A stretch of DNA of 64,000 nt from contig CAIJPS010000084.1 of assembly GCA_903822595.1 (NCBI GenBank), forward strand, positions 1 through 64,000, read 5' to 3'. Of this stretch, positions 18,217 to 22,579 are shown in pieces. Source of the DNA: an uncultured Chlorobiaceae bacterium (lineage in GTDB: Bacteria > Bacteroidota > Chlorobiia > Chlorobiales > Chlorobiaceae). The notes under the pieces are model-generated. The model was not told the DNA's origin and did no database searches. It was given only the letters and a program-made list of their open reading frames with translations. Positions within the stretch are counted from its first letter, which is position 1. Every line of letters begins with the position of its first letter. The translations under genes and the position numbers were made by a program.

Positions 18217-19698
18217 ATGAGTAACAGCATCACTTCCGACTCACTCCACCATCTCCTCGGCATTCCTCTCGATACTCCGCTGGGGATTGATGAGATGTGC
18301 AAACGACTCCAGCCAGTGCTCTATCGGGCACCTGAGCTCTCGCCACGCCTGGAGCGCTTTTGTTGCGCCCTTGCCAACGCCATGCGCGCTCTCGGGATTG
18401 CTGTACTTTCAGAAAAAGAGTCTTCGGGAAATGACGGACGCTTTGCTCCCGGTACGGTTATTCTCGCTCCGGGATATTTTCCTGACAATTTGCTTGCAAT
18501 CAACCGCGTCACAACGCTCTACAACAACATCATTGTCGGCATCTACGACGAAGCGGCGCCGCTTACCCCGGACTCCCTGCCACAGGAGAGGCTCGATGCC
18601 ATTGTGGGCCGGCTCGCCCGCGACATGGTGCATATCCTTATCTTTGTCACCGACCACTCATGGAGTATCTGCACCATGAACGGGGGAGTGGTCACCTTCA
18701 ACACCCCGCTCCCCTCACCGGAAGATGTACGCAACACACTGGTACCCAAGCTCACGGCACAGGTTGTTCCGCCAAGAGGTGAAGAGCTGGACATAGAGCA
18801 GGGAGCGCTGGAGACCGGAACCGGGGAGTTTGAGGGTATTGCAGAGGATTTTCTCGAGTGCAGCGCCCTTTGGGGCAGCAATGCCTGCCTCTTGACGCAT
18901 ACCTCAACCGAGGAGCTCGAATACCGCAGCAACTTTTACAAGCGGATTGTTGCCCGCTATCTCGACGAGCGAAGCGGCATGAGCTATGGCTTTTTCGCCC
19001 GCCAGTTGCCGGTTTCGGCAGAGCCCGCACTTATTTTTGAAGAATCCGGATCGACGGACGATCATGGAGAGCATGAGGCGGGCAAGGTTCGGATTCGGGT
19101 GCAGGGACACATCATGCTCGTTCCGATACCACAGGTACGCGTCATAACCACCAGATCGGGGTGCAGAAAAAATCATCTTGAAACCAAGAACGATCTGGTG
19201 GAGATCGGACTCATGCAACGCAACGGGAGGCAACGCGCATACCTCAAGACCCCGAGGAGCTGCCCTTCGGAGATTGTCGTCAAACCCTCCTTCGACACCC
19301 TCACCATTCTGGCACACGCTCTCGGTAATGCCCTGACAGCAAGTATCCTGATGACACTCAGGCCTGAAGCCAGCTTCCCCCGCCATCTGGCCCGCTTCGG
19401 AACTTCGATGACGCACTGGCACGACTATCCGGAGAGCGGGCTGCTGCCAGAAGGGTACCATCTGCACGGAGAAGAGAATCCACCGGTCGCCTGCTCAACG
19501 CCGCAATCGGCGGCATACAGCCTTCTCGGAAAAATCGCGGCTCTTGAACACGCACTTGAAGAGGGAACGGCATACCGGGGAGATGTACATGTGGAACCCA
19601 GCCACGGCACCAACATTGTCGGCATGCTTTCACTTGCAGAAACCGCCCGGCTCATGAACACGGCCCGCACCCCGGAGTTTCTTCAGGAGATGCCGTAA
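18217..19698 (+). CDS. Unrecognised 493-aa protein after nadK
   Basis: A long, well-formed gene that I cannot place in a family. It has no signal peptide and no transmembrane helix, so it should be cytoplasmic. The N-terminal ~170 residues look alpha/beta (ERFCCALANAMRALGIAVLS, TVILAPGYFPDNLLAINRV, ARDMVHILIFVTDHSWSICTMNGG). A central acidic linker follows (about residues 180-215). The C-terminal half includes a basic, Cys-bearing loop (TTRSGCRKNHLE), the stretch DTLTILAHALGNALTASILM and repeated histidines (THWHDYPE, GYHLHGEE). The codon usage and GC content match the neighbours, so it looks like a resident gene, possibly lineage-specific. It is 45 bp after nadK and convergent with the KdsC-like gene (4 bp between stops). 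Confidence 0.8.
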   Translation: MSNSITSDSLHHLLGIPLDTPLGIDEMCKRLQPVLYRAPELSPRLERFCCALANAMRALGIAVLSEKESSGNDGRFAPGTVILAPGYFPDNLLAINRVTTLYNNIIVGIYDEAAPLTPDSLPQERLDAIVGRLARDMVHILIFVTDHSWSICTMNGGVVTFNTPLPSPEDVRNTLVPKLTAQVVPPRGEELDIEQGALETGTGEFEGIAEDFLECSALWGSNACLLTHTSTEELEYRSNFYKRIVARYLDERSGMSYGFFARQLPVSAEPALIFEESGSTDDHGEHEAGKVRIRVQGHIMLVPIPQVRVITTRSGCRKNHLETKNDLVEIGLMQRNGRQRAYLKTPRSCPSEIVVKPSFDTLTILAHALGNALTASILMTLRPEASFPRHLARFGTSMTHWHDYPESGLLPEGYHLHGEENPPVACSTPQSAAYSLLGKIAALEHALEEGTAYRGDVHVEPSHGTNIVGMLSLAETARLMNTARTPEFLQEMP

Positions 19699-19702
19699 AG
19701 GC

Positions 19703-20266
19703 CTACTCCTCCTCTTCTGACTCCTCGACTCCTCTCTCGATGTAGGGCCATTTACCCTGCTTGATAAGAATCATCTCGACCAACTCCCGCACACACCCTT
19801 TTCCACCCTCGTAGCCGGAGATATAACCGACACGGTTCCGGAGATAATCCGCGCCGTCAATGGCGGTCGCGGGCAGGCCAACTTTTGCAAGCACCCCTAT
19901 GTCACCGATATCATCGCCGATATAGGCACACTCCTCATCAGCAAGATCGTGCCGCTGGAGAAAGGCTTCGTAGGAGTAGAGAAGATTTTCCCCGTTGAGG
20001 TAGAGATCCTGCACGCCAAGCGCTTCAAGCAGTGGGCGGTACCCTTCAGCATCCCTTTCCGACAGAACGGCGATATGCACTCCCTGTTTCAGTGCTTCCT
20101 TGATGGCAACGGCATCTCTGACCGAAATTGAACAGAGCTCTCCGCCGTTGGAGTCAAAGGTAATGCGGCTGCCATTCAGGACACCGTCTACGGGAAAAAG
20201 AAGCGCCCGGACGGCTTTGAGGGCAAGATCTATTCTTGACGTTGGATCAGCTTGCGAAGGCTGCAT
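19703..20266 (-). CDS. KdsC-like HAD protein lacking the nucleophilic aspartate
   Basis: 187 aa, related to 3-deoxy-D-manno-octulosonate-8-phosphate phosphatase (HAD subclass C0). The family end is clear: CAYIGDDIGDIGVLAKVGLPATAIDGAD (motif IV acidic pair) and GYEGGKGCVRELVEMIL. Motif I, normally DVDGVLTDG, reads FPVDGVLNGS: the first Asp, which forms the phospho-enzyme, is Pro. The Lys of motif III is also not evident. Motif II is VLSERD rather than the ITGR form. I chose ATG 20266 (typical length); an in-frame start at 20332 would overlap kdsA. It directly follows kdsA, as real kdsC often does. Probably catalytically dead or repurposed; a functional KDO-8-P phosphatase should be sought elsewhere. 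Confidence 0.8.
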   Translation of the reverse strand: MQPSQADPTSRIDLALKAVRALLFPVDGVLNGSRITFDSNGGELCSISVRDAVAIKEALKQGVHIAVLSERDAEGYRPLLEALGVQDLYLNGENLLYSYEAFLQRHDLADEECAYIGDDIGDIGVLAKVGLPATAIDGADYLRNRVGYISGYEGGKGCVRELVEMILIKQGKWPYIERGVEESEEEE

Positions 20267-20304
20267 CCCGAAATATTGAAACCCTTCCAAAAGCGTATGA
20301 TGTT

Positions 20305-21135
20305 TTAGAGTGAATGAAGAGTATGCACGCACCGGTAAAGGTGGAGCAATTGTTTGACCATCGTGCCGAAATCGGCCAGGGCAACCTGTGTGGTGGCATC
20401 CGAAAGCGCTTTCGACGGATCGGGATGAATCTCAAAAAAGAGACCATCCACACCTGCGGCAACTGCTGCCCGCGCAAGGGGCATCACATACTGACGCTCT
20501 CCACCTGAAACCCCCTGGCCCGCTCCCGGCAGTTGCAGGCTGTGAGTCGCATCATAGAGCACAGGATAGCCCGATTCTGCCATTTTGGCCAGCCCCCTGA
20601 AGTCGACAACAAGGTTGTGATAACCAAAGCTTGATCCCCTTTCGGTCAGCATAACCCGTGGGTTGCCCGTCTGAACCACCTTCGCTGCGGCAAGCACCAT
20701 ATCCTCAGGAGCCATAAACTGCCCCTTCTTGATATTGACCGCAAGTCCACTCTCTCCGGCAGCCACCAGAAGTTCGGTCTGGCGGCAGAGAAATGCCGGT
20801 ATCTGCAGCACATCCACATAGCGGGCAGCAAGCGTAACCTCTTTGGTTTCGTGCACATCGGTAATCACCGGCATGTGATAGTTATGGCGAATCTCGGCAA
20901 GCACTTCAAGCGCCTCGGTGTCGCCGATACCGGTAAAGGAGGAACCGGAAGTACGGTTAGCCTTGCGATAAGATCCTTTGAAAATAAAACGAACACCCTC
21001 CTGCCGGCTGATGCGCTGCAACTCTTCTGCCGTCTGCAGAGCCATAGCCCGGCTTTCAATAACGCAGGGGCCCGCTATAAAAAGCGGAGTGCTGTCGTCA
21101 GGAACTGAGAGTGAACCAATCAAGAACTTTTCCAC
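20305..21135 (-). CDS. kdsA: 2-dehydro-3-deoxyphosphooctonate aldolase (KDO-8-P synthase)
   Basis: 276 aa. Condenses PEP with arabinose-5-phosphate to KDO-8-phosphate for the lipopolysaccharide inner core. Motifs: [28 protein letters not shown], the substrate region [54 protein letters not shown] and [13 protein letters not shown]. The Cys in CVIES (normally the Cys of metal-dependent forms, Asn in the others) suggests the metal-dependent class, as does the length. Transcribed from a 121-bp divergent promoter region shared with the half-ClpB gene, and followed by the KdsC-like gene. Confidence 0.96.
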
Positions 21136-21256: not shown

Positions 21257-22579
21257 ATGAGCATCGCCGACACGAAACAACGGCTTGAGGAGATAGAAAA
21301 ACAACTCGCAAACCTCATTGAGGAACAGACCGTCATCAAGGCCAAATGGGAAAGCGAAAAGGAGCTGATCCAGTCATCGCGCAACCTGAAATCGCAGCTC
21401 GAAGAGCTTCGCGTGCAGGCCGAAGAGTTTGAACGGCAGGGCGACTACGGCAAGGTTGCTGAAATCCGTTATGGTAAAACCGTAGCCATTGAGCGCCAGA
21501 TCGAAGAAAACCGTCTGAAAATTGAAGCAAAAAAAAGCTCCGGCGACTTGATCATGAAAGAGGAGATCGACGCAGAAGACATTGCCGATATCGTCTCGAA
21601 ATGGACCGGCATTCCTCTCAGCAAGATGCTCCAGTCCGACCGCCAGAAGCTTCTCTTGATCGAAGAGGAGCTGCACAAGCGGGTGATCGGACAGGAAGAG
21701 GCCGTCACGGCGGTCAGCGAAGCGGTTAAACGCTCACGTGCAGGCATGGGTGACGACAAGCGACCGATCGGCTCCTTTATCTTTCTGGGGCCCACCGGCG
21801 TCGGCAAAACCGAGTTGGCCCGCACTCTGGCTGACTATCTTTTTGATGACGAAGATGCCATGATACGCATCGACATGAGCGAGTACATGGAATCACATAC
21901 TGTCAGCCGTCTGGTCGGTGCCCCTCCAGGCTACGTCGGTTATGAGGAGGGTGGACAGCTCACCGAAGCGGTACGCCGCAAACCCTTTGCCGTTGTGCTG
22001 CTTGATGAAATCGAAAAAGCGCACCCCGACGTCTTCAACATCCTTTTGCAGATTCTTGATGATGGACGCCTTACCGACAGCAAGGGACGGACGGTGAACT
22101 TCAAGAACACCATCATCATCATGACGAGCAACATAGGTGCCCAGCTTATACAGTCGGAAATGGAAAAGATGGAGGGAGTTAACCGCGAGGGAATGCTCTC
22201 CGGCCTCCAGGAGAAGCTCTTCCAGCTCCTGAAACAGAAGGTAAAACCCGAGTTTCTCAACCGCATCGACGAGGTTATCCTCTTTACGCCGCTCACCAGG
22301 GAAGACCTGAAAAAAATTGTTCTGATCCAGTTCGACCGCATCAAGGCGACTGCATTGCGGCAGCGCATCAACCTCACCATCTCTGAAGCGGCCATCCAGT
22401 GGTTTGCCAATGCAGGCTTCGACCCAGCCTTCGGCGCCCGGCCACTCAAACGGGTGATGCAGCGCAAAATCACCAACCGTGTTTCAGCGCTCATTCTTTC
22501 GGGTGAAATTCAGGAGGGAGAAGAGGTTGCCATCGATATTGTCGACGGTGAACTCACCATTATGAAAGCACTCTCCTGA
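21257..22579 (+). CDS. clpB: ClpB second half (middle-domain coil plus NBD2), free-standing
   Basis: 440 aa that align only with the latter half of the ~860-aa ClpB disaggregase. Residues 1-90 are the second part of the middle-domain coiled coil ([18 protein letters not shown] to [19 protein letters not shown]), then [21 protein letters not shown], Walker A GPTGVGKT, Walker [15 protein letters not shown], the pore loop [13 protein letters not shown], sensor and arginine-finger regions ([10 protein letters not shown]) and the D2 small domain [13 protein letters not shown]. It has its own ATG and promoter region, and no N-terminal half lies upstream (kdsA is there, on the other strand). From memory, Chlorobaculum tepidum also has two ~440-aa ClpB proteins, so the chaperone is probably split, with the NBD1 half elsewhere. 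Confidence 0.93.

What the first reader, a model, noticed from the sequence alone, without database searches (positions are those of the whole stretch)
19703..20266. KdsC-like protein with the nucleophile aspartate replaced by proline, next to kdsA
Motif I reads FPVDGVL instead of LDVDGVL, and motif II/III residues are also altered, while the acidic motif IV and the GGKGCVRE tail are conserved. Selection clearly maintains the fold. It may have become a regulator or scaffold of KDO synthesis, with another phosphatase taking over the reaction.
Basis: partly seen in the sequence, partly recalled or inferred. Interest (0 to 1): 0.6.

Follow-up and report, generated by a model that had tools for sequence, protein, structure and literature searches.

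The report
Order-wide inactivated KdsC in green sulfur bacteria
Green sulfur bacteria carry, beside the gene for an outer-membrane sugar synthase, a copy of the next enzyme in the pathway whose essential catalytic aspartate was lost long ago in their common history, yet evolution still preserves the protein, so it has probably become a non-catalytic partner or sensor while another phosphatase does the chemistry.

Summary
The minus-strand gene 19703-20266 (true start probably TTG at 20290, 14 nt after kdsA) has KdsC sequence and predicted fold. The nucleophile Asp is Pro25 and the motif III Lys is Leu95; the +2 Asp, motif IV and tail are intact. It is not a sequencing error: all 62 readable Chlorobium genes have Pro, using all four Pro codons. 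In Chlorobiales families f1-f3 all 93 readable genes lack the Asp (Pro, Ser, Ala, Thr, Asn or Val). One deep-branching genome (f4) keeps it, as do all 55 other Bacteroidota KdsC examined. dN/dS is about 0.08, so the protein is maintained. The KDO pathway is otherwise complete and KDO was measured in Chlorobaculum tepidum (PMC12285230), so another phosphatase must act. The best candidate is an intact paralog beside a neuB-like gene, missing only from f4 and four less complete genomes. All Asp-less forms share an N-terminal FG(M/I/V) segment absent from the intact forms examined. Best reading: an ancient pseudophosphatase kept as a non-catalytic partner or sensor of KDO synthesis, probably of KdsA. 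Loss of the catalytic residues is well supported; the role is inference.

The parts
19703..20290 (-). Pseudo-KdsC gene, 195 aa from the conserved TTG start at 20290 (187 aa from the ATG at 20266)
   Evidence: TIGR01670 above cut-off; AF2 model matches E. coli KdsC, TM 0.80-0.87
20192..20194 (-). Codon CCC, Pro25, at the position of the HAD nucleophile aspartate
   Evidence: alignment to E. coli and B. thetaiotaomicron KdsC; 62/62 Pro in Chlorobium
20186..20188 (-). Asp27, the +2 acid/base aspartate, retained and invariant
20060..20062 (-). Ser69, motif II Ser/Thr, retained in this gene
19982..19984 (-). Leu95, where canonical KdsC has the motif III lysine
19901..19918 (-). GDDIGD, acidic motif IV, intact
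19784..19807 (-). GGKGCVRE tail motif, intact
20243..20290 (-). N-terminal segment MEGFQYFGMQPSQADP; the FG(M/I/V) core is present in all Asp-less forms and absent from the intact KdsC and paralogs examined
   Evidence: 93/93 versus 0/1 (f4), 0/15 and 0/39 (other Bacteroidota KdsC), 0/31 (paralogs)
20305..21135 (-). kdsA, KDO-8-phosphate synthase, upstream in the same apparent operon (14 nt gap)
   Evidence: PRK05198 379 bits, TIGR01362 355 bits; synteny

Best explanation
The gene encodes a KdsC-derived pseudophosphatase. In the ancestor of most Chlorobiales the nucleophilic Asp was lost, and later, in Chlorobiaceae, the motif III Lys. The protein was kept with its fold, its +2 Asp, its acidic motif IV, Arg71 and the GGxGxxR tail, together with an N-terminal FG(M/I/V) segment that the intact homologs examined lack. 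I propose that it is now a non-catalytic protein of KDO synthesis: it binds a pathway compound (KDO, KDO-8-P or a relative) in the old pocket and/or docks through its N-terminus on KdsA, tuning or scaffolding the committed step, in the manner of HisZ on HisG. KDO-8-P is dephosphorylated by another phosphatase, most likely the intact YrbI-family paralog at G000:C103:46411-46926. Shown: loss of catalytic residues, conservation, predicted fold, linkage to kdsA in Chlorobiaceae and several relatives, completeness of the pathway. Inferred: ligand binding, partner, regulation, and which phosphatase replaced it.
For: Asp lost in 93/93 readable genes of families f1-f3 and kept in f4 and in all 55 other Bacteroidota KdsC examined. 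Median dN/dS 0.082 in Chlorobium, close to kdsA 0.066 and below the intact paralog 0.113. Pro kept in 62/62 Chlorobium while its codon varies. The predicted fold matches E. coli KdsC. N-terminal segment confined to Asp-less forms. kdsA adjacent in f1, f2 and part of f3, with a 14 nt gap in the window. kdsD, kdsB and waaA present. KDO measured in Cba. tepidum (PMC12285230). The intact paralog is in nearly every Asp-less genome (missing from four that are 77-91% complete) and absent from f4, which keeps the Asp.
Against: No interaction or ligand was shown. kdsA is not adjacent in f3 genera g4 and g8, where the Asp-less protein persists. Rate covariation with KdsA is hardly stronger than with an unrelated neighbour gene (partial 0.50-0.52 versus 0.42-0.46). 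The paralog carries nonulosonate-type features and a neuB-like neighbour, so its coincidence with Asp loss rests on one evolutionary event and one f4 genome.
Confidence: 0.5

Rival explanations
1. Non-catalytic subunit of the intact paralog: the pseudo-KdsC forms mixed oligomers with the paralogous phosphatase and adjusts its specificity toward KDO-8-P.
For: Canonical KdsC proteins are tetramers (established knowledge); both genes occur together in nearly all Asp-less genomes.
Against: Only about 26% identity; unlinked genes; no rate covariation beyond that with KdsA (partial 0.13-0.15).
Confidence: 0.15
2. The protein left the KDO pathway for an unrelated binding function.
For: Persists where kdsA is not adjacent (f3 g4 and g8).
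Against: Adjacent to kdsA in Chlorobiaceae, f2 and part of f3; pocket and tail residues of KdsC are retained.
Confidence: 0.2
3. It is still a KDO-8-P phosphatase that uses Asp27 or metal-activated water in place of the lost nucleophile.
For: Asp27, Asp118 of motif IV and the GGxGxxR tail are invariant; KDO is made in Cba. tepidum.
Against: Six different residues replace the Asp, none known to serve as nucleophile in HAD phosphatases; Chlorobiaceae also lost the motif III Lys. HAD phosphatases need the Asp (established knowledge).
Confidence: 0.08
4. A decaying relic without function, or a sequencing error.
For: None beyond the lost catalytic residues.
Against: dN/dS about 0.08-0.18, open frames in nearly all genomes, Pro conserved through synonymous change, presence across three families.
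Confidence: 0.02

Closest known systems
KdsC / YrbI KDO-8-phosphate phosphatase (HAD class C0, TIGR01670)
   Same: Sequence family, predicted fold, +2 Asp, motif IV, GGxGxxR tail, kdsA neighbour
   Different: Nucleophile Asp and motif III Lys absent; extra conserved N-terminal FG(M/I/V) segment
HisZ, regulatory subunit of ATP phosphoribosyltransferase (PMC9734150)
   Same: Proposed analogy only: a non-catalytic protein (related to an enzyme, from memory) that controls a biosynthetic enzyme of its pathway
   Different: Different fold and pathway; HisZ is experimentally proven, this is not; no homology
KDN-9-phosphate phosphatase (BT1713 type, NF058599), closest named kin of the intact paralog
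   Same: Paralog scores 139 bits, shares the TGE and AEK positions with it, and lies beside a neuB-like gene
   Different: Below the equivalog cut-off of 180 bits; substrate untested; it is not the window protein

Membership tests
KdsC KDO-8-P phosphatase | Family profile score above curated cut-off | tested here: met
   TIGR01670 118.2 bits against 106.95; below the equivalog PRK09484 cut-off (115 against 208)
KdsC KDO-8-P phosphatase | HAD class C0 fold | tested here: met
   AF2 pLDDT 82.5; best Foldseek hits are KdsC structures, E 5e-17; predicted, not solved
KdsC KDO-8-P phosphatase | Motif I DxD with nucleophile Asp | tested here: not met
   PVD; Pro in 62/62 Chlorobium
KdsC KDO-8-P phosphatase | Motif II Ser/Thr | tested here: met
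   Ser69; Ala in part of genus g2
KdsC KDO-8-P phosphatase | Motif III Lys | tested here: not met
   Leu95
KdsC KDO-8-P phosphatase | Motif IV acidic residues | tested here: met
   GDDIGD
KdsC KDO-8-P phosphatase | Homotetramer | not testable with these tools
   monomer model only
KdsC KDO-8-P phosphatase | Hydrolysis of KDO-8-P | not testable with these tools
   needs assay
KDN-9-P phosphatase (intact paralog, not the window protein) | NF058599 equivalog cut-off | tested here: not met
   138.9 bits against 180

The most novel reading that the evidence does not exclude
An order-wide pseudophosphatase that acts as a dedicated, ligand-sensing regulatory subunit of KDO-8-P synthase, docking through its N-terminal FG(M/I/V) segment, while a nonulosonate-type paralog took over KDO-8-P dephosphorylation.
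Probability: 0.3. Interest if true: 0.7.

Novelty: new variant of a known kind. Interest (0 to 1): 0.52.

Why it matters
A protein of the KdsC family would normally be annotated as the KDO-8-P phosphatase; in green sulfur bacteria that annotation is very probably wrong although KDO is made. A long-conserved bacterial pseudophosphatase beside the first committed enzyme of KDO synthesis would be a testable case of an enzyme turned regulator, and it leaves a defined gap: which phosphatase completes KDO synthesis in Cba. tepidum.

Tried and rejected
A kdsA-pseudoKdsC fusion in one MAG (L021) is a frameshift at the end of kdsA, not evidence. Rate covariation first looked strong (partial 0.75 with KdsA), but an unrelated neighbour gene gives much the same, so it is not used. 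Nucleophile labels 'A' in the tree for genus g2 are an artefact of a text pattern; one search gives the right counts. The first RpoB tree held one wrong frame, and the clade tests used wrong row sets; one search replaces them. The N-terminal motif count missed Tyr; one search replaces it. The whole genome was not available as a file. The HAD specificity papers I wanted were not held. No held paper joins KdsC and phosphatase with Chlorobi or KdsC with pseudoenzyme.

Full report
Observation. The gene lies on the minus strand, 19703-20266 from an ATG. It scores above the cut-off of the YrbI/KdsC family (TIGR01670), and its best matches among solved structures are KdsC enzymes. Aligned with them, the nucleophile Asp is Pro25, the +2 Asp is Asp27, motif II is Ser69 (acceptable), the motif III Lys is Leu95, and GDDIGD and GGKGCVRE are intact. 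Translation probably starts at a TTG/GTG codon conserved in Chlorobiaceae, 24 nt upstream of the ATG (20290), because protein similarity begins there. That leaves 14 nt after the kdsA stop.

Not an error. In Chlorobium (group g1) 62 of 62 readable genes have Pro, encoded by CCC, CCG, CCA and CCT (20, 35, 2, 5). The Pro is therefore maintained, not a chance mutation. In the sister genus (g2; named loci include Chlorobaculum) it is Ser 14, Pro 5, Ala 1; in f2 (named match: Chloroherpetonaceae) Thr; in f3 (named match: Ca. Thermochlorobacter) Ser, Asn, Thr or Val. One genome of a fourth family, f4 (Chlorobiales bacterium ES-bin-17), keeps Asp, the Lys and motif IV. All 15 plus 40 other Bacteroidota KdsC examined have Asp. 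Group codes were matched to names through contig lengths shared.

History. The KdsC tree groups all Chlorobiales sequences (100/99) and puts f4 beside f1 with modest support; a single Asp-less clade is not rejected (p 0.27). RpoB rejects f1+f4 (p 5e-5) and does not reject f4 as the earliest branch (p 0.34). One ancestral loss of Asp is the simplest reading; two losses are not excluded. The motif III Lys was kept in f2 and f3 and lost in f1.

Selection. Median dN/dS is 0.082 in g1 and 0.177 in g2, against 0.066 and 0.102 for kdsA and 0.113 for the paralog in g1. Many g1 pairs were saturated at synonymous sites and left out. The AF2 model (pLDDT 82.5) matches E. coli KdsC structures at TM 0.80-0.87. 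The protein is maintained.

What was kept and gained. Asp27, Arg50, Asp51, Arg71, Asp118, the GGxGxxR tail and Trp173 are invariant. All 93 Asp-less forms have an N-terminal segment with the core FG(M/I/V) (FQYFGMQPSQADPSS in most Chlorobium); f4, 54 testable other Bacteroidota KdsC and 31 paralogs do not.

The pathway. kdsA and kdsB are present; kdsD and waaA are present in the genomes tested. KDO has been measured in Cba. tepidum cells and vesicles (PMC12285230). Genome G106, one contig of 2,154,946 bases, matches the size I recall for Cba. tepidum TLS (memory); its KdsC reads SLDGV with Ala in motif II, so it lacks the Asp too (L079). A different phosphatase must therefore act on KDO-8-P.

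The paralog. An intact YrbI-family phosphatase (DNDGVFTDN, MTGE, KEK, GDDVND) lies at G000:C103:46411-46926, directly before a neuB-like gene without the C-terminal part of NeuB. It occurs in all order genomes searched except f4 and four that are 77-91% complete; f4 also lacks the neuB-like gene. Its best named kin is KDN-9-P phosphatase, below that family's cut-off. It is the leading candidate for the missing activity, but its sequence points to nonulosonates, so this is open.

Mechanism. I favour a non-catalytic partner or sensor in KDO synthesis, most likely of KdsA: adjacent genes in Chlorobiaceae, f2 and part of f3, retained pocket residues, and a new N-terminal segment. HisZ on HisG is a working analogy (PMC9734150, seen), not a homolog. 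Against it, kdsA is not adjacent in f3 g4 and g8, and rate covariation is hardly better than for a linked neighbour. Confidence: loss of the canonical catalytic residues about 0.95, functional retention 0.95, role in KDO synthesis about 0.6, KdsA partner about 0.35.

Verdict. A real, order-wide pseudophosphatase by sequence; a new variant of a known family; the role is unproven but readily testable.

Noticed in passing
window 21257-22579 (+); G000:C14:77884-79173: ClpB is split into two unlinked genes, N half (profile 1 to about 433 of 853) and C half (about 426-853), in five Chlorobiales genomes from all four families; the C half lies divergently beside kdsA in the window. No full-length ClpB over the cut-off was found in these genomes.
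   Followed up: partly
window 18217-19698 (+): 493-aa protein with no Pfam match, conserved next to the pseudo-KdsC in Chlorobiaceae (59 g1 and 16 g2 loci).
   Followed up: partly
L002:1999-2925 (G000:C103:46951-47877): neuB-like synthase lacking the C-terminal part of NeuB, 72-76% identical between Chlorobium and families f2/f3, more conserved than kdsA (49-60%); paired with the intact phosphatase in most genomes examined.
   Followed up: partly
L021 (G331:C27): kdsA and pseudo-KdsC read as one 479-aa frame through a frameshift at the end of kdsA; single incomplete MAG, probably an assembly error.
   Followed up: yes
L162 (genome G114): Genome G114 (99% complete) shows neither kdsA nor pseudo-KdsC, though it has kdsB and the paralog; possibly a contig gap over the linked pair, not checked.
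   Followed up: no
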